Origin: Thermoproteota archaeon
GTDB lineage: Archaea; Thermoproteota; Thermoprotei_A; Sulfolobales; Pyrodictiaceae
Reading direction: 5' to 3'
DNA length: 64,000 nucleotides
Assembly: GCA_013153145.1 (NCBI GenBank)
Contig: JAADEY010000017.1
Span: forward strand, 1 to 64,000
A program made the position numbers and the translations under genes. Below are positions 5,161 to 50,422 of this stretch, in pieces. Position 1 is the first letter of the stretch, and every line of letters starts with the position of its first letter. The notes beneath the pieces were generated by a model. That model worked only from the letters and a program-made list of their open reading frames with translations, searched no databases and had not been told where the DNA came from.

Positions 5161-5209
5161 GAAAAGGTATGGTCTCTAGGCCAGCGAAGCCCTGGTGGGG
5201 GTAAGCTCC

Positions 5210-6001: not shown

Positions 6002-6005
6002 CATC

Positions 6006-6206
6006 TTGGATGAAGACCCCCTCGTACTCATAGACAAGGCCATGGGCATACTAGAGGAGCTCGAGAAGAGCATAGGCAGGGTTAGCTCATCGGCGGAGAA
6101 GGGTGAGGTTAGGAGGGGGCAGGTGTTCCGCCTATACAACCTTGTAGTGAACCTCGAGGAGACGCTCCGGGAGCTGCGCAGACTGGTCTACGAGAAGTGC
6201 CGATAA
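6006..6206 (+). CDS. Small helical protein of unknown function
   Basis: A 66-residue protein starting at TTG 6006, four bases after the phosphorylase stop. It is charged and predicted to be two amphipathic helices (LIDKAMGILEELEKSIG and VFRLYNLVVNLEETLRELRRLV), suggesting a helical hairpin or dimer. I recognise no family. The tight spacing suggests co-transcription with the phosphorylase and possibly with hypF, which starts 34 nt later. Confidence 0.55.
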   Translation: MDEDPLVLIDKAMGILEELEKSIGRVSSSAEKGEVRRGQVFRLYNLVVNLEETLRELRRLVYEKCR

Positions 6207-6240
6207 CCCTCCCAGGCCCCTACGGCTACACAGCGCAGGT

Positions 6241-21356: not shown

Positions 21357-24300
21357 GCACCCTCACCCTCCTATACATCTTCCATGCTATGAACACGGCT
21401 ATAACGATAGCAGCGCCTGCTATCATGTAGGGTGTCAGCCTCGCTATCTTGGTTATGAGCAGTGGCTTTAAGCGGAGGACGTAGCTCGTCTCCCTAGTCA
21501 CCTTCACTATATCGCATACCTGCATGTAGCCCTGCTTCGACGCGCAAACCCTGTACGTCCCTATGGGTAGTGACACCCTGAGCTCGCCCTTTGCAGTCGT
21601 GAACAGCCTGGTCTCGTAGATCACGTTGATGCCGCTTATGTAGACCAGTGCCTGCGGCAGAGGCTGGCCGAGGTCGTTTACTACATCCAGGTTGAATGTT
21701 ACGAGCTTCCTGGCGAGCCTCACGGAGACCTTGTACCGGTACACGGTGCCGGGTATGACTATCGTCTTCCTCGTGTAGAGGCTCGAGGTGAACTCTATCT
21801 TTATCGTCTTGGCGCGTGGGAGCAGCAGCGTCACCTGCCCGGTGCCCGGCTTTAGGTGTACGTAGACGGTGAAGTTGCCGGTGCTCACAGTCATGTCGAC
21901 GGGCGTCTTGGGGGGAGTGCCGGTGTACGCGTCGCGCAGGAGGAGGGTGACCTCTATGAAGCCCCTCTCAAGTATCAGCGTTATCCGTGTCGGCCCCGTG
22001 ACCTCCACGGTCTTCTCCAAGGGGTAGTAGGGCTCGACCGGTATCCCGGTGAGCTTGTCAACGAGCATCTTCGCGGGCCTGACCTCTATGTAGTGCTTGC
22101 CTGCTGGGAGCTCGAAGGTGACTGTGAAGTTGTGGGCGCCGCCCGGCACGCTTGCCTTCGGCGAGCCGTCCACGAGGACTAGGAGCGGTACTATTATCGG
22201 TGCCTTCGCCGAAGCTTCTACGAGGCTGACTGAGACCGGGAACGTCTTCGGCTTGAGTGTTATCCATGCAGTCGTCGTTGTACTATGGTGCTCCACCCTT
22301 ATGCAGTTCCTCTGGAGCACGGGGCTCTCGGCGCATATGTGGTATGTGCCGTAGACTAGGCCTGCGAGGCTGAAGCTAGTCTCCGTGAGCCTCCTCGAGA
22401 TGTGGAGGCCGGCTGGCCCAGTTATGTTGACGTCCACCGGTATCTTCTTGACGAGCTCTACTGGTGCGAGCAGCTCTACCCTCAGCACGCCGGTGCCCCT
22501 CTTGAGGTACGCGTCTATCGTCGTGTTCTCAGCCAGGACGATGTAGGCTGTGTACGGCATGTATAGTGGTGGCTGCGTGGCGGGCTCGATGTCTATCTTG
22601 TAGTTGCCGTATGGGAGTATCGCTGTAGTGTTGGGGTGCGTGGCGTTGACCTCTGCACGGAACCTCGTCACACCGAAGCTATCCTGTATGGTTACCCTGA
22701 GGGGCTGCAGCAGCCTGGAGCCGAGCTCGTCGAACACCCTTATGTCCAGCCTGAACCTCCTCACACTCACGTTTAGCAGTAGGAGTGTGCTCGGCTTATC
22801 TATGGCGACCCTCACGCACTCCGGCACTATTAGTGGGGCGGTGTAGCATACGGTGTAGTTGCCGTAGCGTAGGTTGCTCAGCGTCAGTCCCTCGAGGGGC
22901 TTGGTGAGCACGGTGACGTAGTGGTATACTGGGCCGGTTACATTCACTGTTAGTGGTATCTTCTTGAGCACGTCGAGCCTCTTGGACGTGAACTTGAGCT
23001 CCAGGGATCCCAGGAGCGGCTTGAAGACAACCTTCTCCTCGGGCTCCCTAAGCGTGACGTTCACGCACGGCTGGTCGACGATCACCCCGCGTATACACAC
23101 GGTATAGTTGCTGTAGGGGAGCTTGCTGAAGACCACGCTCGCGGCCCCGGTGAGGTTGGCGCTCCTCCTTATGCCGAGCTCCCTCGAGACAAGAGTTATG
23201 GTCGTGTTAACGCCCTCCATGACCCCCTTCGGGGCCTCGATGCTGGCGGTGATGGAGCCACGGTACCTCACCATGATCATCCTCACCGTCGCGTTGGGGT
23301 GCAGCCAGTCGAGGAGCACGGTCTCGTTGACCGGCTCGTAGTATGGGTTCAGGGGCTCGGCTGACACGCTGTAGTTGCCCGGGGGCAGCATCAGCTCCGC
23401 CTTGGTGATGTTGGCGTAGAACGTTATATTGTAGGTGCCTGGTAGGGGCGAGGATATGGCCTCAACCACTACGGTCACGTTTGTGAGCAGGTTCTTGCCG
23501 AACTCGTCCCTCAGGCTTATCAGTAGCGGGAACCTCCTATAGCGGAGCTTGACGGTGAGCTGGGCCTCGCCTCCGGGCCTCACGGTTATCCTTGGGAGCG
23601 TCTTCGGGTACATGTTGGGGTTCGGCGGCGTAATAGTCACGTTGTAGACGCCGTACGGTATGTTCGTGAACACTGCTACGCCGTCAGCCCCGGTCTCCGC
23701 TGAGAGGGTCACGGGTACACTGGCACCCCTCGGCCCCGATATCGTTACGAGCGCCCCGCGGAGAGGCCTGCCAGCCTCATCCCTAACGACAACCTTGAGG
23801 GAGCCTGCACGGTACATGGTGAGGTTTAGGTATATGCCATCGGGGTCTAGGAGCCTGTGCAGCTTGAGGTAGTCCTCCATTATCTTCTTGGCAGCCTTAT
23901 TGAGGTTGTAGATCAGCAGGGCGTCGCTCCCACGGGCGAGGCCGAGCACGGTGAGCCCATTATTCACCCAGAACGTCTCGGCCCCACCGCTCCAGGACGG
24001 CTTGAAGCCTAGGCTCGTCGAGAACCTCAGCATAGGTATGAGCGGCACAGTCCTATTGATGTAGCCCAGCAAGTGTATCGAGCCGTCCTCGGTGAGCGCC
24101 ACCAGTACGAGGCCGGGGGCGCCCGGCGGCTTCACAAGCCTCGCCTTGACGAGCGGGGCTGGGAGCACGTAGCTCCACGCGAGGCTGTAGGAGTCCGTCT
24201 TTGTATTGTATGTTAGGAGGCTTATCCTCGGCCCACCCATACACGTCGTTAGGAGTAGGCGTCCGCCGTAGAGGGGTGTCGCCTCCGGGAGCCCCTTGCT

Positions 24301-25584
24301 GCAGGGGGTGTATATGGCTAGCTTGGTGAGGCTCATAGCTCCCTCGGAGGCGTCTACGCCGTAGACCATGAGTGTGTGCCCGGCCCTCACGATGAGCGTA
24401 TACATGTGTGCGACGGCGGGCAGCATGTATGCCCTGTACAGCTCAGCGCCGCCAGGCACGGTCTCCTCGTCAACTATGGTTCTAGCCTCAGTGACTAGCC
24501 TGGTGCCGTTGACCCCGACAAGCTCTAGGAGCATGTACCTCTCATGGCCCTTGAAGGGCCTTGGTATAGTCAGCACGTTCATGAAGTCGTCCGGGTACCT
24601 CATCGTGAGCGTGAAGCTGCATGAACCATTCACATAGGTGGGGGTCAGTGCCTGCCTTATGTTGAGGTACTCGGCTCTAACAATAGACCCGGTAACCGGC
24701 TCCCTGTACTCTATGTAGGCGGTGACGTTCAGTGGTAGTGGTGCGAGGAGCTTGGGGAATGAGAGCGTCCCATTGGAGTCCGTTACACCCGTTAGGCTGA
24801 GCCTCAGCACGCGGTTGAGGGCTGACTGTGCAAGGAACAGGTACACCTTCACCCCGCTGAAGGCCTGCCACTTGTTGCTCGTCGTGTTGTAGAATAGGAG
24901 CTTCACCCTTAGACTGCAGGGCATGGACTCGAGCATGAACACCTTGTCGGCGCCGGTTGCGAGGCTCGAGAGCGGCAGGGTGTAGTTCATTACCGGCGCT
25001 ATCGACTCTATCGGTACAGCAAGCCTATGCACCGGTACAGCTGTGTCGCTCACCGGGCCCGGCGTGTATACGCTCAGCAGGTTCCCGTGGTAGTCGAAGA
25101 GGTAGAGGGCCTCGGAGCCCGCGTAGCTGCTCTCGACTATAATGTGGCTGGGTGTGAGGTGGAGGAGCTTCACGGGCCCCTCGACGGCATGTATGTATAA
25201 TGGGGCCAGGCTATGGTTGAGCGCAAGTACAAGCACCTCTCCCCGATCCGTGCCGAAGCCGGCCAGGAGGCCCCCACGGCTGGGCGTGTAGGATACGGCG
25301 GTGAGTCTCCCGGTGAGCGGGTAGGTGTAGCCGAGATAGTCTCCGAAGACGTCGTAGAGGCTGATAACAGTCCCCGAGCCCGAAGACCCTATACCGACCA
25401 CAACCCTGTCAAACGGGTCGTACAGCGTCCTCGCCACGGGTTTGGCGAGCTTTACCTCCACTATAACGGGCCCAGGCATTGAGAAGTAGTCATACGGCTT
25501 CGGGGCGACGGCGGCTGCGGCCGCGGCGGAGACAACCGCCACGGCCAACACGCCGGCAATCAATAGGAGCCTCCATGCGTCCAT
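21325..25584 (-). CDS. Giant cell-surface protein with beta-propeller and repeated beta-sandwich domains
   Basis: A 1419-residue exported protein. Residues 1-27 are a signal peptide ending in an Ala-rich stretch; about 1383-1405 is a C-terminal membrane helix followed by a short basic cytoplasmic tail. Residues about 50-580 look like propeller repeats. From about 595 to 1380 there are roughly nine carboxypeptidase-regulatory/CnaB-like domains, each with a xxGNYTVxxxP-type strand. Four domains carry an identical C-x9-C pair (around residues 829, 912, 1082 and 1345), likely disulfides. Many N-glycosylation sequons occur. Its stop overlaps the pilin-like gene, so an adhesin, stalk or filament-capping role is inferred. 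Confidence 0.7.
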   Translation of the reverse strand: MDAWRLLLIAGVLAVAVVSAAAAAAVAPKPYDYFSMPGPVIVEVKLAKPVARTLYDPFDRVVVGIGSSGSGTVISLYDVFGDYLGYTYPLTGRLTAVSYTPSRGGLLAGFGTDRGEVLVLALNHSLAPLYIHAVEGPVKLLHLTPSHIIVESSYAGSEALYLFDYHGNLLSVYTPGPVSDTAVPVHRLAVPIESIAPVMNYTLPLSSLATGADKVFMLESMPCSLRVKLLFYNTTSNKWQAFSGVKVYLFLAQSALNRVLRLSLTGVTDSNGTLSFPKLLAPLPLNVTAYIEYREPVTGSIVRAEYLNIRQALTPTYVNGSCSFTLTMRYPDDFMNVLTIPRPFKGHERYMLLELVGVNGTRLVTEARTIVDEETVPGGAELYRAYMLPAVAHMYTLIVRAGHTLMVYGVDASEGAMSLTKLAIYTPCSKGLPEATPLYGGRLLLTTCMGGPRISLLTYNTKTDSYSLAWSYVLPAPLVKARLVKPPGAPGLVLVALTEDGSIHLLGYINRTVPLIPMLRFSTSLGFKPSWSGGAETFWVNNGLTVLGLARGSDALLIYNLNKAAKKIMEDYLKLHRLLDPDGIYLNLTMYRAGSLKVVVRDEAGRPLRGALVTISGPRGASVPVTLSAETGADGVAVFTNIPYGVYNVTITPPNPNMYPKTLPRITVRPGGEAQLTVKLRYRRFPLLISLRDEFGKNLLTNVTVVVEAISSPLPGTYNITFYANITKAELMLPPGNYSVSAEPLNPYYEPVNETVLLDWLHPNATVRMIMVRYRGSITASIEAPKGVMEGVNTTITLVSRELGIRRSANLTGAASVVFSKLPYSNYTVCIRGVIVDQPCVNVTLREPEEKVVFKPLLGSLELKFTSKRLDVLKKIPLTVNVTGPVYHYVTVLTKPLEGLTLSNLRYGNYTVCYTAPLIVPECVRVAIDKPSTLLLLNVSVRRFRLDIRVFDELGSRLLQPLRVTIQDSFGVTRFRAEVNATHPNTTAILPYGNYKIDIEPATQPPLYMPYTAYIVLAENTTIDAYLKRGTGVLRVELLAPVELVKKIPVDVNITGPAGLHISRRLTETSFSLAGLVYGTYHICAESPVLQRNCIRVEHHSTTTTAWITLKPKTFPVSVSLVEASAKAPIIVPLLVLVDGSPKASVPGGAHNFTVTFELPAGKHYIEVRPAKMLVDKLTGIPVEPYYPLEKTVEVTGPTRITLILERGFIEVTLLLRDAYTGTPPKTPVDMTVSTGNFTVYVHLKPGTGQVTLLLPRAKTIKIEFTSSLYTRKTIVIPGTVYRYKVSVRLARKLVTFNLDVVNDLGQPLPQALVYISGINVIYETRLFTTAKGELRVSLPIGTYRVCASKQGYMQVCDIVKVTRETSYVLRLKPLLITKIARLTPYMIAGAAIVIAVFIAWKMYRRVRVLAEEVTGEVF

Positions 25585-29376: not shown

Positions 29377-30120
29377 TTGGAGCCTCCTAGGCCGGATGTG
29401 GGTAGTGCTGTGGCGGCGGCGGCCGTAACGGCCCTAGTATACTTCTTCTCCGGGAGCGTCTCGGCCAGCATAGCCGCGGCCATAATGGTCTTCATGATAG
29501 CTATACCGGTCCTCCTAGCCTGGAGGACGTATAGGCTGCTCGCCAACATAGAGATAGAGGCTAAGAGGATAGAGGTTCTCTACGAGTGGATGCTCGTCGT
29601 CGGGAAGAGGGTGGGTGTGAATGGGGGGATAGCACTCCTCTACCTCATAAGGAGGCCGACGGGGATACAGGCTGTCCAGATAGGTGGTGCGCCGCTTCGC
29701 GCGGAGGCTGCTGCGCTTGTGCCGCTCCTCTACAAGCTGGTGTGGTTCGGCGACCCCGTGGCGGCTAGGAGGGATAATACGAGCTACATACTCTTCCCGA
29801 GCCTCCTGGCCCACCGGCTAAGCATGAGGGTGTCGAGGACTACTAATGGGAAGCCGGTGCTGGAGGTGAGGGACGAGGGGGATGCCAGGATAGTCTACAA
29901 GCTGATAAGGGTGATGATAGAGTCGAAGGGGCAGAGGCTCCCCAGGACGCTCACAGCCTACGCGGCGACGAAGGCGTTCCTCCGCCTCTTCATGGACGGC
30001 CTGCTGAGGGTGAAGGCGAGCCTACTAGAAGAGCTTGACAAGGTGCTGCCGGCGGAGCCGCCGTGGGTGAGGTGGAGGGTGAAGAAGCAGCTCGCCGCGG
30101 AGACGCCCCTCTCAGCCTAG
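29377..30120 (+). CDS. Membrane-anchored protein of unknown function
   Basis: A 247-residue protein with two membrane segments near the start (about 9-28 and 30-50) and a 190-residue cytoplasmic, basic domain rich in Arg/Lys helices. No known domain recognised. TTG 29377 has GGAGGTGG about 7 nt upstream; the initial codons give MEPPRPDVG. It follows the pilus platform gene by 140 nt in the same direction and could be part of that locus, but the gap means it may have its own promoter. It overlaps the convergent DUF1611 gene by 9 nt. Confidence 0.6.
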   Translation: MEPPRPDVGSAVAAAAVTALVYFFSGSVSASIAAAIMVFMIAIPVLLAWRTYRLLANIEIEAKRIEVLYEWMLVVGKRVGVNGGIALLYLIRRPTGIQAVQIGGAPLRAEAAALVPLLYKLVWFGDPVAARRDNTSYILFPSLLAHRLSMRVSRTTNGKPVLEVRDEGDARIVYKLIRVMIESKGQRLPRTLTAYAATKAFLRLFMDGLLRVKASLLEELDKVLPAEPPWVRWRVKKQLAAETPLSA

Positions 30121-31170
30121 TATCGAGTCGACTATCCTCGAGACGCCGTGGCGTATCGGGTCTGCGACCGGGACGCCGTAGACGCGCTCAGCCATACGCA
30201 CGGCCTCCTCGGCCTCCTCCCTGCCGAGCATATGTGTGTCCAGAGTCATCCCGGCGAGCCTGCAGCCCGGGTAGGGGTTGAGGAGCTTCAACACCTCATA
30301 CTCCAGCCTAGGGTCTGTGAGGGGCATGCGCTGGGGGAAGGCGGTCCTAGTCCTCCTCCCCGCGGCGTGCGCCAAGACTATATGGGTCGGCGATGCCCCG
30401 CGGAGTATGCCGAGCGATACATGGCCATACGCTGGGTGGGTGACGGCCGCCTGCCCCTCGACAACCACGGCCTCACACCCCTCCCTGAAAGCCTCCACTA
30501 TGTAGCCCTCCACCACCCCCGCGACGAAGTCGCTGGGGACGGCGTCGACGACCATGCCCCTAGCCCCGAGGAGCAGCATCGTCTGCCCCGTGCCTATGAG
30601 GCAGGCCCTGACACCCCTCCTCTTCAACTCGAGGTATATCTCCATGGACGCTATATTCTTCCCCGTCTCGCAGTCAGTCCCGGCGACGAGTATCCTGGGC
30701 CCAGGCGTCGAGAGCACCTCGCCGCTCCAAATCCTAAGCCTGCTCCTATCCGGCTTCCTGATATCAACGATCCTCCCCCCACCCCTCCTCGCGGCCTCAA
30801 CAGCCTCCGGGTCCTCGGAGAGGAAGTGGTGCAGCCCATTATACACGGTCATGCCTAGCTCGAGGCTCCTAATGATGTCCTTCTTCCATCCATCGGGGAT
30901 GTAGCCGCCGACGGTCGCAGCACCTATAATGAATGCCTCCGGGTCGCCGTGCAGGGCCTCCTCGAGGCTACCGACGACGGGTATCCCCCTCCTACCAACC
31001 CCGACCACGTGGCCGGCATCCTTGCCCGCATGCTCCGGGTCTATCACAGCCACTATCCTGAACCTCTCGCCTCCAGAGTATATCACTAGGTCGTTGGCGG
31101 TCTTCCCCAGCCCCGTGCCGAGGGCCCCGGGAGCATAGATGACTGCGGGCGTCTTACCCCTCCTCGTCAA
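30112..31170 (-). CDS. DUF1611 family protein (DgcN-like)
   Basis: A 352-residue protein with an N-terminal Rossmann-like domain (AVIYAPGALGTGLGKTANDL, about 10-140) and a C-terminal P-loop domain (VAGTDCETGKNIASMEIYLELK, GEVLSTPGPRILV, TGQTMLLLG). This is the DUF1611 family, found beside amino-acid epimerase genes in some genomes; enzymatic role is unresolved. The TTG at 31170 is chosen, with GGAGG 8 nt upstream and the normal family length; longer in-frame starts would add an 80-residue Pro/Arg-rich segment that overlaps the divergent gene. No epimerase gene lies nearby. Confidence 0.75.
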   Translation of the reverse strand: MTRRGKTPAVIYAPGALGTGLGKTANDLVIYSGGERFRIVAVIDPEHAGKDAGHVVGVGRRGIPVVGSLEEALHGDPEAFIIGAATVGGYIPDGWKKDIIRSLELGMTVYNGLHHFLSEDPEAVEAARRGGGRIVDIRKPDRSRLRIWSGEVLSTPGPRILVAGTDCETGKNIASMEIYLELKRRGVRACLIGTGQTMLLLGARGMVVDAVPSDFVAGVVEGYIVEAFREGCEAVVVEGQAAVTHPAYGHVSLGILRGASPTHIVLAHAAGRRTRTAFPQRMPLTDPRLEYEVLKLLNPYPGCRLAGMTLDTHMLGREEAEEAVRMAERVYGVPVADPIRHGVSRIVDSILG

Positions 31171-31376
31171 GGCGTCTTCCTCCACCAAGTCGGCCTCCAG
31201 GCTCAAGTGGTAGGGTGGGCTAACCGGGGGAGGGGGTAATAAGCGGTGGCTCCCCAGCAGCCTCCGGGGGGATTCGCTAAAATACCTCCAGCATGTGATT
31301 AGGAGCCATGTGAAGAGCGTGGGTAGCCCCTGCCGGGACGCCTCCTCTAGGTGTGGGTGAGAGGTGCGGGATAGCC

Positions 31377-31691
31377 TTGGCGAGCGATAAGGCGCTTGGA
31401 GCACTCCTCCTCATAGTATCAATAATAGTGATCATAGTCTACGGCTGGCTCGTCTTCGCCCCGCCCGTGAAGACGGTCTTCGGACAGCCTCTAGACATAC
31501 TAGTGCTCAAGATAACGGGCTTCGTCGCAGTAGCAATAGTATTCGGCATCCTCGGCTGGATAGGCTACACGCTAGCGACAACGCCGCCGCCGAAGCCGAT
31601 AGAGGAGATAGAGAAGGAGATCGAGGAGGAGCTGAAGAAGCTCGAGAAGGAGATGAGCGAGGAGGGCGGGGCGCCCGCCGAGAAGAAGTAG
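31377..31691 (+). CDS. Small membrane protein with two helices and charged coiled tail
   Basis: A 104-residue protein: two membrane helices (about 8-30 and 45-68) joined by a short loop, then KPIEEIEKEIEEELKKLEKEMSEE, a highly charged coiled-coil tail facing the cytoplasm. Such proteins are common in crenarchaeal genomes but I know of no function. The TTG at 31377 follows a GAGGTG; GTG 31353 would add 8 residues. Divergent from DUF1611. Confidence 0.6.
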   Translation: MASDKALGALLLIVSIIVIIVYGWLVFAPPVKTVFGQPLDILVLKITGFVAVAIVFGILGWIGYTLATTPPPKPIEEIEKEIEEELKKLEKEMSEEGGAPAEKK

Positions 31692-31807: not shown

Positions 31808-32137
31808 GTGAGGCGTAGACTAGCCGGCCTTGCAGCCCTTATGGTCGCCGCCCTCCTCGTCTCCTGCATGGCTGCCGCGGCCCTCAAGGCATACATCGAG
31901 TTCGGCATGCTGAAGGCAAAGTACTATAATATCCTCGACAACCCGTCAGCATACCTAGAAGCCTACGGCAAGATGCTGCTGTACACGGGGCTCTCCTGGC
32001 TCGGCGTCAAGCTGACATGGCTCAGCATAGAGGGTGTCGTCCAGAGGGGCCTGGAGAGCATCATCGGGCCCTTGAACGTCATAGACCAGGTAGCGGTGGT
32101 GATGGTCTCACTGGGTATAACGCTGATACTGCTCTAG
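31808..32137 (+). CDS. Predicted membrane protein, unknown
   Basis: A 109-residue protein with hydrophobic segments near both ends (LAGLAALMVAALLVSCMAAAAL and VAVVMVSLGITLILL) and a tyrosine-rich middle (AKYYNILDNPSAYLEAYGKMLLYTG). Looks like a two- or three-pass small membrane protein. The GTG at 31808 has GGGAGG about 10 nt upstream; a T-rich run GTTTTTAG at 31750-31757 precedes it. It shares the CTAG convergent stop with the NurA-like gene. Confidence 0.55.
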   Translation: MRRRLAGLAALMVAALLVSCMAAAALKAYIEFGMLKAKYYNILDNPSAYLEAYGKMLLYTGLSWLGVKLTWLSIEGVVQRGLESIIGPLNVIDQVAVVMVSLGITLILL

Positions 32138-33102
32138 GCCTCCCCTCCACCAGTTTTTGGCGCCGCGAGGGCCAGGAGGCTGCGCGCACCAGGCCTCATC
32201 GCTATCCTGGATAGGAACAGCCTCCTAAGGGCATCGGCGCCGAGTGCGAGCCTGCCAGCCTCCTCATGCGCCATCTCGACGGGGGCCGGGTGCTGGAGCC
32301 CCCGGGGAGTCGTGGAGACCACTAGCTCGACGCCCCAACCGGCATCCCACGCCTCGACCCCCCTAACACCCCTCCACCATGGGGTGAGGAGGTAGGCGGA
32401 CTCCACGCCCTCGTAGAGGCTGTATGGCTCGCCCTCGCCGGGGCTCAGTGGCCCCAGCCACGCGGCAGCCGCCTCAGGGTGCTCCTCAAGGGCCTTGGCG
32501 AGGATGATGTATGCCAGCTCGGCGTCGCCGAGCCCCCTCCTGCCCAGGAGGTCTGCCAGCCTCCTACCCCTAACCCTCTTCACGTACCCGGCCACCCTCC
32601 TGCCTCGGAGCAGGCGGCTCCTCCATGCATGGTAGCCCCCATAGCTCCTTGCAGCCATCTCCGTGTAGGGCATGTGGGGCGGATCCACTATCGGGCCGTC
32701 GAGCACCACGCTATACCTGCCCGACAGCTCGGCAGCCGTCTCGGCCTCCACCCTCATCATGGCGTACTCGACGTACTCCTCCATCTCCTCCCCGCCCGCC
32801 TCCTCAACAGCGACTACATCCTCGTGGACAGTGAGGAGCCCTGAGGAGCCCCGTGGAGACGCGTTGACCCCGACGACCCGGTAGGCGTAGAGCCTCCTAC
32901 CAGGGGTGCGGGCGACCTCCATGAAGAACCCGTCAACGCCGGCAGCCTCCCCCCAGCCGCGCGGCTCGTCGAGGTAGTGGAGGAGGCCTAGGGCCTCAAC
33001 CGCCCTTAGGAGCCTCCCAGCCTCCCTGTACAGCTGCTGGAGCCTCTCGGCCTCCGCCTCGGCTAGCCTCACCACCCTCTCTACCAGCCTGCCTGCGGCC
33101 AA
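32134..33102 (-). CDS. NurA-like nuclease
   Basis: A 322-residue protein matching the NurA domain. Catalytic-type residues in family order are Asp57 (GVDGFF), Glu119/Glu121 (MMRVEAE), Asp135 (VVLDGPIVD), the basic KRVRGR strip (about 175-180) and His279 (PVEMAHEEAG). NurA is a manganese-dependent 5'-3' nuclease that with the translocase HerA resects DNA ends; here HerA is absent, and the gene instead starts 48 nt after a giant ATPase gene, very likely in one operon. The TTG start is at 33102. Sequence identity to known NurA looks weak, so the assignment rests on motif order. Confidence 0.7.
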   Translation of the reverse strand: MAAGRLVERVVRLAEAEAERLQQLYREAGRLLRAVEALGLLHYLDEPRGWGEAAGVDGFFMEVARTPGRRLYAYRVVGVNASPRGSSGLLTVHEDVVAVEEAGGEEMEEYVEYAMMRVEAETAAELSGRYSVVLDGPIVDPPHMPYTEMAARSYGGYHAWRSRLLRGRRVAGYVKRVRGRRLADLLGRRGLGDAELAYIILAKALEEHPEAAAAWLGPLSPGEGEPYSLYEGVESAYLLTPWWRGVRGVEAWDAGWGVELVVSTTPRGLQHPAPVEMAHEEAGRLALGADALRRLFLSRIAMRPGARSLLALAAPKTGGGEA

Positions 33103-33150
33103 GCCCTGGCTCCCGTGTGTGAGGATGGGGGCGGGGCTGGTGTATTAGGG

Positions 33151-36100
33151 CTAGAGCCTAGGCTCTATTATGCCCTTCTCTATGAGGCTTATCAGCCTCC
33201 TCCTGGCCTCCTCGGGTTTCCAGCCTAGCTTCTCAGCTATTATCCTTGAGGCCGTGCTGAGGAGTAGGTCTCCCATAGTCTTCTTCGCCTCCTGGAGGGC
33301 CATGTACGCCTCCACCTCCTCCCTCGTAAGGATCCCAGCCTCCATAACCCTCCTCCTTAGCTCCTCAAGGCCCGCGGCGAGCCTGCAGGCGTCGCTCGGC
33401 GGGGGCTCCCTGTACCCGATGGCTGCTGCTAGGGCGCTGTACTCCAGCCTCATCTTCTCATACTCCTCCCTAACCCTCTTCTCAGCCTCCCTAACCCTAG
33501 CCCTTAGGCCCGCAACTGCCTGCTCGAGCTCGGATGCCAGCCCCTCCAGCCTAGAGGCGGCCGATGAGACGGAGTCCACGTCGAGGCTTATGCCGGCGAG
33601 GCTCAGCGAGTCGAGCGCCTTCTCCGCCCTCTCCCTGGCGGCCGTGGCCTCCTCCATCAGGGTCTTGGCGAGGAGGGGTGACGTGCACTCAGCCTCCCCC
33701 GCCAGCCTCTCCGCCTCCTCGGCCTCCTCCTCCAGCCTCGACGCCGCCGACCTAACCCTTTCAACCGCCTTCTCGAGCCTCGCCAGGGCCTCCCTCAGAG
33801 CCCTTATGCCCGCGGTCGCCTCGTCCAGCCTCCTCCTCCACTCATTGATGCTCTTCTCCAGCTCGTCGAGGCCGAGTATTGTTGAGGAGGGCTTCAGCCT
33901 CGGCGGCCTCGTCTCGACGCCCCCGGCCTCTATGCCTAGGCTGGCGAGCCTCGAGGCTATGGCGTGGAGGTCTGCGGCGAGCTGGTTGTACTGCTCTATG
34001 CAGCTCTGCAGTGTCGACGCTATGGTCTTCAGCCGCTCGGCTGCGGCTGCGGCCATGCCTCCGGGGCTCGTTGAGCCGTAGTCCTCGACTACGCCCATCC
34101 CTCTGAGCTTCTCGTAGAGGAGCCATAGCTTGTAGTTGTATAGTATCTTGGGGCCGAGCCCGCCTATGTAGAACGGTGTCTCCCTCCCCGGCTCCCTCGG
34201 GTTCTTCGCTAGGGCCTTCCTCCACATCGCTGCTACGCGGGCCTCGAGCTCCTCCTCGCTGAGCTCCAGTGCCTCGACCTCTCCTATCGCCTTTATAGCC
34301 TCCTTCAGTGCCTCGACGGCCTCAACCCTCACGGTCACCGGCTCCTCGAACACGTAGCTTGACGCTAGCTCCTCGACAGCGCCCCTCAGCTCCTCGAGCT
34401 CCTCCAGCGCCTCCCTCAGCCTCGCAGCCAGGCTCCTGGCCGTCTCGGCGGCCGGCTTGACGAGCCTCTCTACTATATCCTCCCGGTAGTACTCGACGAG
34501 GTCCTCGACGGTCCTGACGAGCCTCGCGGCCATAAGCATGTTCCCGGCTGTGAGCGCCTCCTCCGCGGCGTCTAGGAGCGTGGACGCCTTCTCGACCAGG
34601 CCGCGGAGGCAGCCTGCCCTATACCCCCTCAGCTTCGCCGATACTATGTAGGCCCAGGCGGCGTCGGGGTCGCCTGCCAGCTCCTCGAGCTCCTCCCTGA
34701 GCTCCCTAATCCTGTCCCTTATCTCTCTTGGCTGCCTTATCCTCAGCCTCGTCTTGTCCGGGTCTATCCTCCTCCCCTGGGCCTCCACGAGCCCACGGTA
34801 GACTAGGAGCTGGAGCAGCATCCTCCTCGTGCCAGGGTTTGTTGTGGCGTCTACGAGGCATCTCCACACCTGCCTGCCCTGCACCCAGTCGCGCTCCCCG
34901 CCGGCCTGCCTTATCGCCTCAAGCACTGAGGCCTCCATTGGGCTCAGCGTGTCTATCTTCATCTCCCCGTTGAGGCGTTCCAGCATCTTGTTGGCTATGA
35001 GTAGGGCGGTGTACTTCTCGAGCGTCGACACCTCCCGGCGGTCGATGTCGGGGCTCAGTATGCCCCTGGAGTCTGGGCCCCCACCCCTCCGGTACACGTG
35101 GTACCTCATGACGTACTCGTAGGCTGTTGTGAGCGCGTCCCTCGGGCTGGCCTTGGGCGAGGGCACGACGAGGTAGTAGCGTAGAGCCCCTGCGAGCTCG
35201 CTGGGCCTCTCAACCTCGTAGGCGAGCTTAGGGTCTGTTATCATGAGGGGCCTGCCGGAGACGCCGGCCCTTAAGGCCGCCTTCAGCGTCTCGGGGTCCA
35301 GTAGCTCGCCGGCCTCGGAGAGGAAGTGTTCAAGCCTATACGTGTCTAGGCCGAGCTCCTCCTGTAGCGCCTGGTCGTGTGGGAGCTTTGCGGCGAGGGC
35401 TGCCGCCTCCTCGAGGGTGTCTGCTGCATCCATCACCTTTATGCCTAGGGCTGAGAGCCTCACCTTCATGACCATCGTCGGTATCCTCACGGGTATGATC
35501 TTCACGAAGAACTTCTCCTCGACCTCCCTCAGCCTCCTCTCGGCCTCGGGGTCGAGCGACCCATAGTAGAGCACTACTACGGCGTGAGGCCTCCAGTTCG
35601 CAAGTATGCATGTCATGACGAGCCTCTCGATCTTCTCTGCATCGCTCTGGCCGAGCTCCCCTGCGACGGCTGCGAGCAGCAGGTTAGCTCTGGGCCTTGC
35701 GTGTCCGAGGTGGAGCTCGACAGTCATCCTGGCGGCCCACGACCCCTGCAGCGTGGGCTGCTCGACGAGTCTATAGGTTGCCGAGGCCGCGGCGATAGCC
35801 GCGAGTAGTATGTGGCGCTGGTCGGCCTCGGCGTAGACTCTCCGGTTCACCCTCAGCCTCTCAAGCCTATCGGCTATGAAGTCTAGGTACTGCAGCTCGG
35901 GGCTGACGTAGAGTGTCTTGGAGAGCTTGGGGGATAGCATTACGGCGTCTACTCCCGTGAGGCCTGCCAGCCTGCCCCTAAGCACCTCTGCCAGCTCCTC
36001 GGCCTCCTGTCTCGAGAGCTCCACGGGGGACGCGTCCATTACAAGGTCGACTAGCTCCTCCTCGCCGGGTATCCCTGCCTTCAGCGTCTCGTCCGGGGCT

Positions 36101-37482
36101 ATGTGTACTATCTGGTCGCCGACGTGTAGGAGCACCTGCGCCAGGCGGGGCACTGTCTTCGAGGCCTCCTCCGCAGCCTCCCTAAACACCTTCAATGCCT
36201 CCTCGGCGTCGACCAGCCTAACCCTATAGATCAGCCTCTGAACCCCCAGCTCCCTCCTTATCCAAGACTCGCCTGCGGCCTCGTTGAGCTCTGCTACCAG
36301 CCTCCCCCACCTGCCGTCGATCATTATGTGTTGTGCTATCAGTGTCTCCATGAAGCCGGTTGCCATCTTGGGGTTGGAGCCGCTTAGCCTAGCCCTGGCC
36401 TCGACGGTCTTCATGAGCCTCGAGTACAGCTCCTGGTTCAACGCGGGTATCTCGGCACCCCCTATGCTGAGCCGGAGCCCCGACAGCAGCCTCACCATGT
36501 CGCCCGCCGAGAGGAGCACGGCCCTCCCGCCGCACAGCCTCTCACCCCTCTCCGCGGCGTAGCCAGCGAGCATCCTGAACGCCGAGACCAGTGCACCCAT
36601 GTTGCCCAGCCCTGCGCTGGCGAGGGCGTTTGCCAGCGAGGGGTTGCTGAGGAAGCCGCGTAGCCCGGCGTCGCCGAACGTGTATCTTGCAAGCGCCTTT
36701 ATGAACTGGAGCGACTCGCTCCTCGTGAGGCTCCTAACGTTTATCATGCGCACCCTGCGCTTGAGCCTGGAGGCTATGGTGGCGAAGTCCTTGAAGCTCA
36801 TCAGCTTGCTGTAGGCGGGAGGGGTGAGGGCCAGGAAGAGGTGGAGGCTCCCCGGGCTGCAGGGCTCTATCCTCCTATCCCTGCACGCGACGCTGACTGG
36901 GGCGACGCCGCCGTTCACGAGGCCGACGAGGCCGGCGACTGTAAGGCCGACTATCTCCTCGCTCCTAGCTGCAACTATGTCCTCGAACTCGTCGACGAGG
37001 AAGACGACGCCCCTACCCGCGGCCGAGACCCTCCTCACGCATGCAGCCACATAATCCCTCGCCGAGCCATACTCGCCGGGGTCCGGCACGAGGAGGGGCT
37101 GCTGCTCCCTCATGGCGGCGAAGAGCGCGGCTGTGAGGAGGTACTCCGGCGCCTTATCCCTCATACGGTTCCTCAGCTCCTCCATGTAGCCGAGGAGGGT
37201 CGACGCCGAGACCTCTACGGCCAGCCATCCCCTAGCCTCCAGCCACGGCTTCACCTTAGCGTTGTAGATGCTTGTCTTACCCTCACCCCACTCGGCGACG
37301 AGGAGCACAACCATGGGGTCGCTGCTCGACGCCAGCTCCCCCAACACGCCCTCAACCTGCGTCAACACCTCCTCGCGGGAGGGCAGCCTCGGCAGGTACT
37401 CCTCTAGCAGCCTCGCGTCGGAGCCGGCCAGCGAGGGCAGGCGGCCCGGCCTAGCACCACACTTCATGGCTCGGGTATACAC
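33151..37482 (-). CDS. Giant P-loop ATPase with winged helix and long coiled coils
   Basis: A 1443-residue protein. An N-terminal P-loop domain has Walker A AEWGEGKTS (residues 64-71), Walker B VVFLVDEFEDI (159-169) and a sensor-like LALTPP (218-222); WGEGKTS resembles KAP/STAND-type NTPases. A beta-alpha region (about 590-680) is followed by a winged-helix-like region (about 875-940, SPMEASVLEAIRQAGGERDW). From about 945 to 1400 it is mainly coiled coil, in three blocks, and it ends with a second helical motif KPEEARRRLISLIEKG. No transmembrane segment. The start may be GTG 37482 or ATG 37467. The NurA-like nuclease follows, suggesting a DNA-processing pair. I do not recognise a named family. 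Confidence 0.7.
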   Translation of the reverse strand: MYTRAMKCGARPGRLPSLAGSDARLLEEYLPRLPSREEVLTQVEGVLGELASSSDPMVVLLVAEWGEGKTSIYNAKVKPWLEARGWLAVEVSASTLLGYMEELRNRMRDKAPEYLLTAALFAAMREQQPLLVPDPGEYGSARDYVAACVRRVSAAGRGVVFLVDEFEDIVAARSEEIVGLTVAGLVGLVNGGVAPVSVACRDRRIEPCSPGSLHLFLALTPPAYSKLMSFKDFATIASRLKRRVRMINVRSLTRSESLQFIKALARYTFGDAGLRGFLSNPSLANALASAGLGNMGALVSAFRMLAGYAAERGERLCGGRAVLLSAGDMVRLLSGLRLSIGGAEIPALNQELYSRLMKTVEARARLSGSNPKMATGFMETLIAQHIMIDGRWGRLVAELNEAAGESWIRRELGVQRLIYRVRLVDAEEALKVFREAAEEASKTVPRLAQVLLHVGDQIVHIAPDETLKAGIPGEEELVDLVMDASPVELSRQEAEELAEVLRGRLAGLTGVDAVMLSPKLSKTLYVSPELQYLDFIADRLERLRVNRRVYAEADQRHILLAAIAAASATYRLVEQPTLQGSWAARMTVELHLGHARPRANLLLAAVAGELGQSDAEKIERLVMTCILANWRPHAVVVLYYGSLDPEAERRLREVEEKFFVKIIPVRIPTMVMKVRLSALGIKVMDAADTLEEAAALAAKLPHDQALQEELGLDTYRLEHFLSEAGELLDPETLKAALRAGVSGRPLMITDPKLAYEVERPSELAGALRYYLVVPSPKASPRDALTTAYEYVMRYHVYRRGGGPDSRGILSPDIDRREVSTLEKYTALLIANKMLERLNGEMKIDTLSPMEASVLEAIRQAGGERDWVQGRQVWRCLVDATTNPGTRRMLLQLLVYRGLVEAQGRRIDPDKTRLRIRQPREIRDRIRELREELEELAGDPDAAWAYIVSAKLRGYRAGCLRGLVEKASTLLDAAEEALTAGNMLMAARLVRTVEDLVEYYREDIVERLVKPAAETARSLAARLREALEELEELRGAVEELASSYVFEEPVTVRVEAVEALKEAIKAIGEVEALELSEEELEARVAAMWRKALAKNPREPGRETPFYIGGLGPKILYNYKLWLLYEKLRGMGVVEDYGSTSPGGMAAAAAERLKTIASTLQSCIEQYNQLAADLHAIASRLASLGIEAGGVETRPPRLKPSSTILGLDELEKSINEWRRRLDEATAGIRALREALARLEKAVERVRSAASRLEEEAEEAERLAGEAECTSPLLAKTLMEEATAARERAEKALDSLSLAGISLDVDSVSSAASRLEGLASELEQAVAGLRARVREAEKRVREEYEKMRLEYSALAAAIGYREPPPSDACRLAAGLEELRRRVMEAGILTREEVEAYMALQEAKKTMGDLLLSTASRIIAEKLGWKPEEARRRLISLIEKGIIEPRL

Positions 37483-37618: not shown

Positions 37619-38152
37619 GTGGATAAGAGGATCCTCCTCGCGGCCGCCGCGGCGGCCATAGTCCTCGGGGTAGTGTCTGTCGTCGTATTCGTCTACCCCG
37701 GCCTACTCGGCGGCGGCCTATCGGCGCCGGAGACGATGCTTGGCTCCCCCAGGGTGAAGGTCATCTCGGGGGAGAAGGCTGTTGAGCTCGCTAACAATAT
37801 ACACTGGAGCCACTACGTGGGCGTGGTCAAGGCATTGATAGTGAAGTATGCAGACGGCTCAATGATATGGGTGAGCGTGGTCAAGGGAGGCGACGCCAGC
37901 AAGTACGCGGACATGATGGCTGACAGGATAATGCTGTACCAGTCCTCCAGCATAATGCCCTACGAGATACTCGAGGTCGTAAGGATGGGGTCCTGCAGGG
38001 TCTACCTGGCACTGGACAAGAGGACTGACAAGATACACGCCTTCTGGGGCATAGGCGATAAGGTGATCTGGGCAGAGCTCTACAGGAAGGGCAGCCCCAG
38101 GAACATGGAGGCACTCAAGCTACTAACCAGGTTCTATGGGTGTTACTCTTGA
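37619..38152 (+). CDS. Membrane-anchored protein of unknown function
   Basis: A 177-residue protein with one N-terminal helix (ILLAAAAAAIVLGVVSVVVFVYPGLL, about 4-30) and a 140-residue outer or soluble domain with mixed alpha/beta pattern. Sequence features: VISGEKAVELANNIHWSHYVG and LYRKGSPRNMEALKLLTRFYGCY. No family recognised. It is divergent from the giant ATPase gene across a 136-bp region that must hold both promoters (a TTAAGG box at 37580-37585 fits this gene), and the next gene overlaps its stop by 13 nt. Start is GTG. Confidence 0.6.
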   Translation: MDKRILLAAAAAAIVLGVVSVVVFVYPGLLGGGLSAPETMLGSPRVKVISGEKAVELANNIHWSHYVGVVKALIVKYADGSMIWVSVVKGGDASKYADMMADRIMLYQSSSIMPYEILEVVRMGSCRVYLALDKRTDKIHAFWGIGDKVIWAELYRKGSPRNMEALKLLTRFYGCYS

Positions 38153-39186
38153 TACTGAAACGCGACCCGCTGCGCGGCCTAGGGCTAGCCGAGCTGGCCT
38201 CAGCCTACCTGGCAGCGAGGCTCGGGAGGATCGAGGGGCTGAGGAAGCTATCCTACCTACTCTTCATAGCAATGCACATGGATCCGGACACGGGGGGCTA
38301 CCAGCCGCTCAGCAGCTCTCCCCGCTTCTACCTCTACCTCGAAGGCCCCATGATGGAGGGGCTCGGCGGGGTAGTCTCAACCCTCTCCTCGAGGGGTGTT
38401 GTGAGGGTAAGGGTTGAGGGGTTCCCGGGCTCGCTGCCCGGCCTCGTAGACTACATCGACTTCTACGACTGCAAGTCGCTGAGGATAATCGAGCCGAGGG
38501 TCTCGGCGGCCAGGGTTGGGCAGAGGCTCCCGGAGGTGGTCAGGGAGAGGCTGGACGCTGTCGCCGACAAGTATGGCTCGGCGACGCCGTCAGCCCTCGA
38601 GAGGGTCTTGGAGGGCCTTGGGGCGGGTCTCCAGGCCAGGCTTAGGAGGATAGGCGGCCTATACAAGGGGCCTGCGGAGACTGACGGCGGCTGGCCCGGC
38701 GGGGTAGTGGTCGAGGCGAGGAGCACGAGTAAGAGGTACGTTGAGAGGATAGGCGGCCTCGCCTTCCTAGACTCGACGGGCCCGGTTCCGAGGCTGAGGG
38801 GCCTAGTAGACCTCGTAGCCCCCGGGGCGGCGGGCTCCAAGCCCCTCATACAGCCCCTCGTCGCGCACCAGCAGGGCGTGAAGTGCTTCGACCTCCTGTG
38901 GGCCGGGCCGCGTGGCTGCATCGCAGCCGAGGTGCTCGACGGCTCGGCGGGCGAGGCGCTCCCAGCGGGCCTCCGCCTATGCCTCGAGAAGGCTGCAGGC
39001 GGGCCGTGCGCTGGCGTCGTGCTGATAGACTGTAGGCTCGGCGGCTCCCCCATCTGCGGCGTTGTGAACGTGTTGAAGGCCTCCCCTAAGGGCGTGGTCG
39101 TGCTCGGGTTTACATCCCCGGAGACTGATGGAGAGGTGGTTGAGCAGCTATCCTCCATGATATCGTCGGTTACTGGGAGAGGCTGA
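38140..39186 (+). CDS. Conserved-looking protein of unknown function
   Basis: A 348-residue soluble protein, not membrane-spanning. The N-terminal third (GLAELASAYLAARLGRIEGLRKL, then MHMDPDTGGYQPL) and the glycine-rich C-terminal third look globular, with strands such as KGVVVLGFTSPETDGEVV at the end. I recognise no motif or family. Start GTG 38140 overlaps the preceding stop by 13 nt (TTG 38149 is an alternative), so both are translated together. Its position next to the nuclease/ATPase pair makes it a possible accessory. Confidence 0.6.
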   Translation: MLLLILKRDPLRGLGLAELASAYLAARLGRIEGLRKLSYLLFIAMHMDPDTGGYQPLSSSPRFYLYLEGPMMEGLGGVVSTLSSRGVVRVRVEGFPGSLPGLVDYIDFYDCKSLRIIEPRVSAARVGQRLPEVVRERLDAVADKYGSATPSALERVLEGLGAGLQARLRRIGGLYKGPAETDGGWPGGVVVEARSTSKRYVERIGGLAFLDSTGPVPRLRGLVDLVAPGAAGSKPLIQPLVAHQQGVKCFDLLWAGPRGCIAAEVLDGSAGEALPAGLRLCLEKAAGGPCAGVVLIDCRLGGSPICGVVNVLKASPKGVVVLGFTSPETDGEVVEQLSSMISSVTGRG

Positions 39187-44734: not shown

Positions 44735-45451
44735 TTGCTGGGCCTGGAGCCGGGCGCGTGCAGGCTTGTTGGGGGTGTTAGGGTCTGTAGGCCCCCGGTC
44801 GGCGAGCCCATAGTGTTTATAGGTACCTCCTCCGAGGCGGCCATGGAGGGGTTGACGCCCTCCTCCATAAAGACGATGCTTCACGTGCCCCCGCTGCAGG
44901 CTCCGAGGCTCGCACCCCTCGCACGCGTGGTTCCGCTGGCCGTGTCTGGCGTGCCTGTCTACTCGCCCAGCCCCGGCCGCCTCTACACGGTGCTTGCACC
45001 GGCCCTCGAGGAGAAGGGGTATACTCCCCCACTAGCCATGGTGGAGGCCTCCAGCATCGGGGCGGCGCCCGTGACCCTCGTGCAGCGCCATGTTGCGGAG
45101 GCATACTACCATGCTAGGAGGCTCGGCCTGCTCGACGAGATAGGGGCCCTCGGGGAGGAGGTCGCCGAGTACGCTGCAGTACTCTCCGCGCTCACCGGTA
45201 AGCCGGTCGACCAGGTACTCCCCGCGGCAAGGTACCTGGCGGCGCACGCGGACTACATGATTCATGGGGCCAGGCTGCTGGGGGGAGTGGTCGGGGTCTA
45301 TGTCTCGGCGCCGAGGATGACTGCCGGGAACAGGGTTGATGTTGAGAGGGTTGCGAGGGCGTGCGAGGAGTTGAGGAGGACTGGCGGCAGGTATGGCGTT
45401 GCAGTCAAAGCGTGTAGGGCGTGGCCGCCTTTCAGCGTCGAGGAGGCCTAG
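44735..45451 (+). CDS. Unknown protein at end of the nucleoside transporter operon
   Basis: A 238-residue soluble protein. TTG 44735 lies 7 nt after the permease stop with GGGTGA as ribosome-binding site, so it is the last gene of the operon. Sequence blocks: VFIGTSSEAAMEGLTPSSIKTM at 27-48, a mid region PPLAMVEASSIGAAPVTLVQRHVAEAYYHARR, and GGVVGVYVSAPRMTAGNRVDVERVARACEEL near the end. I recognise no domain. Operon context suggests a role in using or sensing the imported ligand. It shares a CTAG stop with the convergent cdvC. Confidence 0.6.
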   Translation: MLGLEPGACRLVGGVRVCRPPVGEPIVFIGTSSEAAMEGLTPSSIKTMLHVPPLQAPRLAPLARVVPLAVSGVPVYSPSPGRLYTVLAPALEEKGYTPPLAMVEASSIGAAPVTLVQRHVAEAYYHARRLGLLDEIGALGEEVAEYAAVLSALTGKPVDQVLPAARYLAAHADYMIHGARLLGGVVGVYVSAPRMTAGNRVDVERVARACEELRRTGGRYGVAVKACRAWPPFSVEEA

Positions 45452-46572: not shown

Positions 46573-46627
46573 AATGGATCCCTTCTTGGCAGCTGGTTTA
46601 TTGGCTGCCTCAAAAAGGCCTCAGGCG

Positions 46628-47440: not shown

Positions 47441-47448
47441 GCGTGCTT
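47435..47448. promoter_or_regulatory. 14-bp palindrome over the cdvB start codon
   Basis: AAGCACGCGTGCTT, perfectly self-complementary, spans the presumed GTG start (47438-47440). As RNA it would fold poorly (no loop), so a DNA-binding site is the likelier reading if it is not chance. Confidence 0.35.
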
Positions 47449-47622
47449 CACCCCTAACCGGCTACATCCCGAGAGAATCATGGCAAGGAGTTGTCGTGGT
47501 AAAGAGTGGGGGGTGCTAACACTCAGTAAATACCGGGGCCGCTGCACCGGCCCGGCCAAAAAGACTCCAGCAGGCTCCTTCATTCCCGGCCCCTTCTACC
47601 CGGCCGCGGGGCTCCAAGGGGC

Positions 47623-49735: not shown

Positions 49736-50422
49736 GTGTTTGTTGTGGCGGGCGTCGTCTGGGATGGCAGGGAGCTTGACTGGGTAGACCCGTGCGAGGT
49801 GAATGACTGCTGTAGGGAGTTCCTACGCGGCGTTGGCGGGAGGTTCCTCACCGGTAGAGTGTTTGAGGAGGCTTTCAAGAGGCTCTTGGAGAGGTATGAG
49901 CCCCCACGGGGCAGGCTCATGTTGATACTCCCGTGCAGCTATGGGAAGCCTTACGGGCAGAGCTTCATACACTACCATATACAGTCTGTTCTCGTCAGGG
50001 AGGGCTTCTATGGCCGCGTCCACCAGGTCATAGTGACTAATGCGGGGGTTGTGCCTAGGGAGCTTGAGGAGTACTGGCCCTGGTGCGCCTATGACTGGAA
50101 CCCGGCCTACGAGACGAGGGAGGTTAAGGAGGAGTATGTCAGGGTGCTTGCCTCGAGGCTTGAGAAATACATTGGGAGGTTCAGGGGGTACTACACGGGC
50201 TTCGCGGCCTACCTCCGCTGGGACAGTGACTCGTGGAGGGCTGTTAGGCTGGCGTCCTCGAGGCTGGGCATCGAGATCCCCAACCTGGCTCCCCGCAGCG
50301 TGCCCGGCGAGGAGGTGTGGGAGGTCAGCCTCCACGGCGTGTATAGGGATCCCGACCTCGTCCTCATAACGCCATCATCTCTTAGGGGTCTTGCTGATGG
50401 CCTCCGGAGGCTGCTCGGCTAG
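49736..50422 (+). CDS. DUF5591 protein, stand-alone archaeosine-synthase-core-like
   Basis: A 228-residue protein with PCSYGKPYGQSFIHYHIQSVL (about 62-82), VIVTNAGVVPRELEEYWPW and AYDWNPAYETREVK; these are the conserved blocks of the DUF5591 domain that forms the core of archaeosine synthase ArcS, in which P-C-S-x-x-K-P-Y-x-x-S-x-x-H holds the catalytic lysine. Unlike ArcS (about 500-600 residues in euryarchaea), there is no TGT-like or PUA domain. It may amidate preQ0 on tRNA with a separate partner, or have another role. GTG start at 49736. It ends in a shared CTAG stop. Confidence 0.65.
   Translation: MFVVAGVVWDGRELDWVDPCEVNDCCREFLRGVGGRFLTGRVFEEAFKRLLERYEPPRGRLMLILPCSYGKPYGQSFIHYHIQSVLVREGFYGRVHQVIVTNAGVVPRELEEYWPWCAYDWNPAYETREVKEEYVRVLASRLEKYIGRFRGYYTGFAAYLRWDSDSWRAVRLASSRLGIEIPNLAPRSVPGEEVWEVSLHGVYRDPDLVLITPSSLRGLADGLRRLLG

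What the first reader, a model, noticed from the sequence alone, without database searches (positions are those of the whole stretch)
32134..37482. NurA-like nuclease paired with a giant coiled-coil P-loop ATPase
The nuclease follows the 1443-residue ATPase by 48 nt in what looks like a two-gene operon. Known NurA pairs with the HerA translocase, and the Mre11 nuclease with the coiled-coil ATPase Rad50. Here an N-terminal P-loop domain, winged-helix-like parts and about 450 residues of coiled coil replace HerA, so this could be a third nuclease-ATPase architecture for DNA repair, replication restart or defence.
Basis: partly seen in the sequence, partly recalled or inferred. Interest (0 to 1): 0.75.

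Follow-up and report, generated by a model that had tools for sequence, protein, structure and literature searches.

The report
HerA-NurA machine with Orc1/Cdc6-like ATPase
Two neighbouring genes of a heat-loving archaeon make a DNA-cutting enzyme and a very large ATP-driven protein whose head is built like the proteins that mark replication origins; across related archaea they travel with a dedicated DNA pump, which points to a DNA-degrading machine for which I found no published description.

Summary
32134-33102(-) is a NurA nuclease (Pfam E 6e-8; the model's best PDB hit is Sulfolobus NurA; catalytic D57, E119, D135 and K175 are invariant). It lies 48 nt behind a 1443-aa ATPase (33151-37482, -). 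The ATPase is neither Rad50/SMC-like nor a HerA substitute. Its head is an Orc1/Cdc6-type AAA+ domain (top PDB hits: archaeal Cdc6/Orc1), with a long C-terminal coiled coil. In relatives the ATPase and this NurA travel with a second, divergent HerA (HerA2). HerA2-ATPase-coiled coil-NurA2 is a tight four-gene operon in 15 of 15 Sulfolobaceae loci examined. HerA2 and NurA2 lie beside the ATPase in another family and outside the order too. ATPase and HerA2 co-occur in 27-28 of 34 genomes that have either, out of 145. Pyrodictiaceae have split the operon; the window keeps the ATPase-NurA2 half. HerA2 is missing from this 79%-complete genome, which still has classical HerA-Mre11-Rad50. Best reading: a three-part DNA-degrading machine, with the Orc-like ATPase as DNA-bound loader. 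The biological role (defence or repair) is unproven. A TGT-like plus DUF5591 pair, adjacent in two distant lineages, hints at a link to deazaguanine modification. New variant of the HerA plus Orc/Cdc6 kind.

The parts
32134..33102 (-). nurA2: 322-aa NurA nuclease (DGPxxDPP subfamily)
   Evidence: Pfam PF09376 E 5.9e-8; AlphaFold model pLDDT 92, best PDB hit Sso NurA 2ygk E 2.4e-10; D57, E119, D135, K175 invariant in 17 homologues
32677..32700 (-). codons 135-142 of nurA2, DGPIVDPP motif, DGP and DPP invariant in the ATPase/HerA2-associated NurAs
   Evidence: alignment A13
33151..37482 (-). giant ATPase, 1443 aa: Orc1/Cdc6-like AAA+ head, alpha/beta and winged-helix-like middle, C-terminal coiled coil
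36448..37482 (-). AAA+ head, residues 1-345 (invariant W65 G66 G68 K69, D164 E165 E167, R243)
   Evidence: Foldseek to 1fnn, 2qby and ORC; N-domain profile hits ~400-aa ORFs, some at contig starts, that look like orc1/cdc6; TIGR02928 orc1/cdc6 E 0.005
35413..35865 (-). middle alpha/beta domain, about residues 540-690, with an alpha-beta-beta-beta-alpha-beta order that resembles an inactive restriction-endonuclease core (inference from DSSP only)
   Evidence: secondary structure of the model
33283..34611 (-). coiled-coil part, about residues 958-1400
   Evidence: SMC/Rad50 coiled-coil matches, residues 1147-1398; long helices from residue 959 on in the model, which ends at residue 1150
49736..50422 (+). 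candidate further part: small DUF5591 (ArcS-like) protein; the same domain sits directly upstream of HerA2 in Sulfolobaceae and G263
   Evidence: PF17884 E 2.3e-16. Membership in the system is inferred

Best explanation
The two genes are the nuclease and the loader/scaffold of a three-part DNA-degrading machine, HerA2-NurA2-Orc-like ATPase, whose genes have been dispersed in this family. Proposed working: (1) the AAA+ head and winged-helix parts of the giant ATPase assemble on double-stranded DNA in an ATP-dependent way, as Orc1/Cdc6 does; (2) the long coiled coil tethers or bridges, as proposed for the BREX ATPase BrxC; (3) the ATPase delivers DNA to the HerA2 hexamer, which pumps the duplex; (4) NurA2, docked on HerA2, cuts both strands. 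Most likely use: destroying foreign or aberrant DNA, apart from the classical HerA-NurA-Mre11-Rad50 break repair that the cell also keeps. Shown here: the families, folds, intact catalytic residues, operon structure and co-occurrence. Inferred: complex formation, loading, direction of pumping and biological role. I hold the three-part module at about 0.85 and the complete statement including the role at the confidence given here.
For: NurA2 is a true NurA with intact active site. The ATPase head is Orc1/Cdc6-like by fold and by profile. HerA2-ATPase-coiled coil-NurA2 operon in 15 Sulfolobaceae loci, gaps of a few bases or overlaps; NurA2-HerA2 beside the ATPase in family f4; HerA2-ATPase-NurA2 outside the order in G263 (NurA2 profile E 8e-54, HerA2 3e-196, ATPase 2e-85). 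HerA2-NurA2 pairs elsewhere in the chromosome of Pyrodictiaceae, HerA2 55-66% identical to the f4 HerA2. ATPase and HerA2 in 145 genomes: both 27-28, ATPase only 5, HerA2 only 1-2, neither 111. Classical HerA-Mre11-Rad50 is separate in the same genome. A 2026 study of Thermococcus HerA-NurA concluded that it is unlikely to act directly in end resection and suggested antiviral defence (PMC12977600); HerA plus Orc/Cdc6 plus nuclease systems are proposed anti-invader systems (PMC10853773).
Against: No direct data on interaction or phenotype. HerA2 is not in the window's own genome, which is only 79% complete. Family f7 (three genomes) has the ATPase without HerA2. The system is inherited mainly vertically and in the window sits among housekeeping genes, with no match in the phage or plasmid collections, which is unlike a mobile defence island. 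PADLOC has no model for the ATPase or NurA2.
Confidence: 0.5

Rival explanations
1. A second genome-maintenance complex: HerA2-NurA2 resects or degrades DNA at stalled forks or unusual ends, with the Orc-like ATPase replacing Mre11-Rad50 as the DNA-end or fork recogniser.
For: Mainly vertical inheritance and conserved chromosomal context within Sulfolobaceae genera; housekeeping surroundings in the window; a PCNA-like gene lies in the G263 operon; the classical HerA and NurA are essential repair proteins (PMC4351679).
Against: Entire sister genera of Sulfolobaceae lack ATPase and HerA2 together, so it is dispensable; classical HerA-Mre11-Rad50 is present in the window's genome.
Confidence: 0.3
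2. One reading: NurA works with the giant ATPase alone, which has taken over HerA's role as translocase.
For: In the window, G002 and G005 NurA2 is adjacent to the ATPase and not to HerA; no HerA2 was found in the window's genome.
Against: G002 keeps HerA2 elsewhere; HerA2 is adjacent in f4, Sulfolobaceae and G263; the head is an Orc/Cdc6-type, not a translocase-type, AAA+.
Confidence: 0.08
3. The ATPase and NurA2 are chance neighbours and function independently.
For: In genera g2 and g5 of the same family the ATPase stands alone with unrelated neighbours.
Against: ATPase, HerA2 and NurA2 are linked in every pairwise combination in separate lineages, including one outside the order, and ATPase and HerA2 are missing together.
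Confidence: 0.04

Closest known systems
Archaeal HerA-NurA with Mre11-Rad50
   Same: NurA nuclease plus HerA translocase plus a long coiled-coil ATPase encoded together
   Different: HerA2 is a divergent paralogue (NCBIfam HerA models match far below cut-off); the coiled-coil ATPase is Orc/Cdc6-type, not the Rad50 ABC type; no Mre11; the classical set exists separately in the same genome
'HerA/FtsK capture' systems with an Orc/CDC6 ATPase, inactive REase, active REase and wHTH (PMC10853773)
   Same: HerA-type pump coupled to an Orc/Cdc6 AAA+ ATPase and a nuclease; the middle domain of the ATPase has the strand/helix order of a restriction-endonuclease core
   Different: nuclease is NurA (RNase H-like), not REase; long C-terminal coiled coil; mainly vertical inheritance in crenarchaea rather than mobile loci; the paper's held text contains neither NurA nor Sulfolobus
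BREX BrxC/PglY (and DUF499, DUF6079) and the BREX-related capture (BRC) system with HerA and TGT (PMC12839542)
   Same: 1200-1500 aa, N-terminal Orc/Cdc6 AAA+, wHTH and alpha+beta parts, C-terminal coiled coil of 250-500 aa; BRC also links HerA and a TGT
   Different: no DUF6079 match; PF10923 BrxC_BrxD only weak in 3 of 26 homologues; no PglZ or BrxX among the neighbours that were scanned; NurA instead
CRISPR-associated nurA-csm6-herA of Pyrobaculum (PMC3396285)
   Same: paralogous NurA-HerA pair beside the classical one
   Different: tied to CRISPR and csm6, no Orc-like ATPase reported; the window's genome has a separate HerA/NurA pair near cas-like genes on contig C10

Membership tests
NurA nuclease | NurA domain above the Pfam cut-off | tested here: met
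   32.9 bits against 21
NurA nuclease | RNase H-like NurA fold | tested here: met
   2ygk E 2.4e-10, 3taz 5e-8, 7f6d 1e-5
NurA nuclease | Acidic catalytic residues conserved | tested here: met
   D57, E119, D135 and K175 in 17 of 17
Canonical HerA-NurA pair | HerA partner gene adjacent or in the genome | tested here: inconclusive
   not adjacent in the window; HerA2 not found in the 79%-complete genome; present in relatives
Rad50/SMC ABC ATPase | ABC signature motif, head split by the coil, zinc hook | tested here: not met
   no LSGG, no CxxC, both Walker motifs at the N-terminus
Orc1/Cdc6 clade AAA+ | AAA+ core of Orc/Cdc6 fold with Walker A/B and an Arg finger candidate | tested here: met
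   Foldseek top hits 1fnn, 2qby, ORC subunits; invariant WGxGK, DExE, R243
Orc1/Cdc6 clade AAA+ | winged-helix DNA-binding domain after the AAA+ core | tested here: inconclusive
   alignments to Cdc6 run over 400-500 columns and HTH models match some homologues, but no separate domain test was possible
BrxC (BREX) | DUF6079 or BrxC_BrxD profile match | tested here: not met
   no match in the window protein at E<=1; weak in 3 of 26 homologues
BrxC (BREX) | PglZ and BrxX in the neighbourhood | tested here: not met
   none among the window neighbours scanned with Pfam; not every ORF of the genome was scanned
HerA/FtsK capture system | HerA + Orc/Cdc6 ATPase + nuclease in one locus | tested here: met
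   for Sulfolobaceae, f4 and G263 loci; in the window only ATPase + nuclease
HerA/FtsK capture system | REase-type active nuclease | tested here: not met
   the nuclease is NurA

The most novel reading that the evidence does not exclude
A crenarchaeal restriction system based on 7-deazaguanine: a TGT-like enzyme and a DUF5591 (ArcS-like) protein mark the cell's own DNA, and the Orc-like ATPase loads HerA2-NurA2 on unmarked DNA, which is then pumped and degraded. Basis: the TGT-like gene and DUF5591 lie directly upstream of HerA2 in two Sulfolobaceae genera and, in the same order with a PCNA-like gene between them, outside the order; the TGT-like gene occurs in 31 of 34 genomes with ATPase or HerA2 and in 12 of 111 without, while a canonical-type tRNA TgtA is present separately. 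The window's genome holds the DUF5591 gene (49736-50422), but no TGT-like gene was found in it.
Probability: 0.15. Interest if true: 0.9.

Novelty: new variant of a known kind. Interest (0 to 1): 0.62.

Why it matters
HerA-NurA is usually taken as the archaeal break-resection machine partnered by Mre11-Rad50, and recent biochemistry questions that. Here is a second, mainly vertically kept HerA-NurA set whose third partner is an Orc1/Cdc6-type ATPase with a Rad50-length coiled coil. It links origin-recognition ATPases to DNA degradation in archaea and parallels BREX and Dnd-type defence in bacteria.

Tried and rejected
Rad50/SMC or ABC reading: rejected. HerA replacement: rejected by HerA2 in relatives. 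Mobile element or virus origin: no tblastn match in the phage or plasmid collections. PDB by sequence: nothing useful for either protein. PADLOC: only coiled-coil noise for the ATPase. Coiled-coil gene of Sulfolobaceae as the split C-terminus of the ATPase: similar last 20 residues and position, but hhalign and BLAST not significant, so left as a suggestion. One genome-contig scan gave only close Pyrodictiaceae relatives. The 247-aa and 348-aa neighbours were followed only to homologues near the ATPase or NurA2 in G002, G003 and G008. The Iyer 2004 FtsK-HerA survey is not held, so an earlier mention there cannot be excluded.
Full report
WHAT IS THERE. The window is contig C14 of a 1.19-Mb, 79%-complete genome of the family Pyrodictiaceae (inferred: close relatives in the named collection are Pyrodictiaceae MAGs). 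The ATPase gene runs 37482-33151(-) and the NurA gene 33102-32134(-), 48 nt apart. Further along are a DUF1611 gene at 30112-31404, a phosphoribosyltransferase, ABC-transporter genes, CdvA and a Vps4-like ATPase. This is a housekeeping neighbourhood; no mobile genes were seen among the ORFs scanned.

THE NUCLEASE. Pfam NurA E 5.9e-8. An AlphaFold model built on 17 homologues has mean pLDDT 92, and its best PDB hits are Sulfolobus NurA 2ygk (E 2.4e-10), NurA 3taz and the Deinococcus HerA-NurA complex 7f6d. D57, E119, D135, K175 and the DGP..DPP motif are invariant in all 17.

THE ATPASE. No Pfam family covers it. Walker A is WGEGKT and Walker B VDEFE, both in the first 170 residues, followed by an invariant R243. 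The model of residues 1-1150 (pLDDT 87) matches archaeal Cdc6/Orc1 (1fnn 1e-5, 2qby 3e-5) and eukaryotic ORC subunits. A profile of the head also finds short ORFs of about 400 aa, some right at contig starts, that look like orc1/cdc6 genes. There is no ABC signature and no zinc hook. Residues 540-690 have the alpha-beta-beta-beta-alpha-beta order of a restriction-endonuclease core without its catalytic motif; this is read off the secondary structure only. The layout (Orc/Cdc6 head, alpha+beta and winged-helix middle, long C-terminal coiled coil) parallels BrxC as described in PMC12839542, but the BrxC profiles do not match.

PARTNERS. In the family the ATPase is found in most genera, but the nuclease is next to it only in G000, G002 and G005. 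In genera g2, g4, g5 and g8 the same NurA subfamily sits beside a HerA paralogue, HerA2, elsewhere on the chromosome. G002 has NurA2 beside the ATPase and HerA2 on another contig. In family f4 the order is NurA2-HerA2 next to the ATPase. hhalign links the NurA2 proteins of f11 with those of Pyrodictiaceae and f4 (probability 98) and the ATPases of f11 and Pyrodictiaceae (probability 94, head only). In f3 the order is ATPase (two ORFs, 605 and 884 aa) then NurA2. G263, from a family outside the order, has HerA2-ATPase-NurA2 with strong profile scores to all three. In f9 (G088, G090) NurA2-HerA2 is preceded by a contig-end ORF that by position looks like the ATPase end; BLAST did not prove it.

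CO-OCCURRENCE. Among 145 genomes of the class (at least 85% complete, plus the window's own), true ATPase matches (coiled-coil-only hits discarded) occur in 32 and HerA2 (E<=1e-60) in 29; 27 have both, 28 if the G090 fragment counts. ATPase only: the window's incomplete genome, G012 and three f7 genomes. HerA2 only: G010 (and G090 on the strict count). Neither: 111. Fisher p is about 1e-23, but the genomes are related, so this is descriptive. By genus: both 12, ATPase only 2, HerA2 only 1, neither 47. Within f11, genera g26, g29, g54 and g55 lack both, so the module is absent as a unit and is dispensable. The HerA2 tree largely follows genera and families, which indicates mainly vertical inheritance; some deep forks are unresolved.

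CLASSICAL REPAIR SET. HerA-Mre11-Rad50 lies intact on C37 and another NurA on C12, so the module is an addition to, not a replacement for, the classical set.

A POSSIBLE MODIFICATION LINK. In f11 genera g56 (most genomes) and g59, a TGT-like protein of ~290 aa and a DUF5591 (ArcS-like) protein of ~195 aa lie directly upstream of HerA2; in G263 the order is TGT, PCNA-like, DUF5591, HerA2, ATPase, NurA2. Class-wide the TGT-like gene is in 31 of 34 genomes with ATPase or HerA2 and 12 of 111 without; 10 of those 12 are one genus. All 26 genomes tested have a separate TgtA match, over the curated cut-off in 24. The window itself holds a DUF5591 gene at 49736-50422. In G032 the TGT-like gene borders another HerA-NurA pair plus a PAPS-reductase-domain gene and a DUF5591 gene. 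BRC systems also join HerA, a BrxC-like ATPase and, in a subset, a TGT (PMC12839542). Whether DNA is modified is untested; most crenarchaea are reported to lack ArcS (PMC11298593, PMC5485725).

HOW IT MOST LIKELY WORKS. Orc-like ATPase binds duplex DNA and loads or anchors HerA2; HerA2 pumps; NurA2 cuts. HerA-NurA complexes are known to do the last two steps (PMC12977600; PMC9960219). The loading step and the biological role are inference. I lean to destruction of foreign or aberrant DNA because of the parallels with HerA plus Orc/Cdc6 systems and the all-or-nothing presence, but vertical inheritance in housekeeping contexts keeps repair alive as a rival.

NOVELTY. Nine full-text searches of the held library found no description of this gene set. 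Subscription papers are not held, and Iyer et al. 2004 could not be read. The parts are known kinds and the combination is a new variant.

Noticed in passing
window 49736-50422(+): Small stand-alone DUF5591 (archaeosine-synthase-like) protein; homologues flank HerA2 in Sulfolobaceae and in G263.
   Followed up: partly
window 29377-30120(+): 247-aa protein of unknown family whose homologues lie next to NurA2 in G002 and next to short (921-932 aa) ATPase paralogues in G003 and G008.
   Followed up: partly
window 38140-39186(+): 348-aa protein without Pfam match, divergently placed upstream of the ATPase; its homologue has a similar place in G002.
   Followed up: partly
L050 (G000:C10) 64-6290: Genes that look like cas genes by eye beside a HerA-like protein (664 aa) and a 525-aa NurA: a third NurA-HerA type pair, perhaps like the CRISPR-linked pair of Pyrobaculum.
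   Followed up: no
L279 (G032:C130) 565-6066: TGT-like gene next to HerA, NurA, a PAPS-reductase-domain protein and DUF5591: looks like a DNA-modification and degradation cluster of another kind.
   Followed up: partly
L241 (G263:C43) 9054-9821: PCNA-like gene inside the HerA2-ATPase-NurA2 operon.
   Followed up: no
L163 (G119:C250) 962-5435: The ATPase is split into two adjoining ORFs of 605 and 884 aa; real gene fission or assembly frameshift not decided.
   Followed up: no
window 21325-25584(-): 1419-aa protein with an N-terminal signal-like stretch and carboxypeptidase-regulatory/Ig-like domains, probably a large surface protein.
   Followed up: no
window 45448-48342(-): CdvA-like coiled-coil protein and a Vps4/CdvC-like AAA ATPase with MIT domain: the archaeal cell-division genes.
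   Followed up: no
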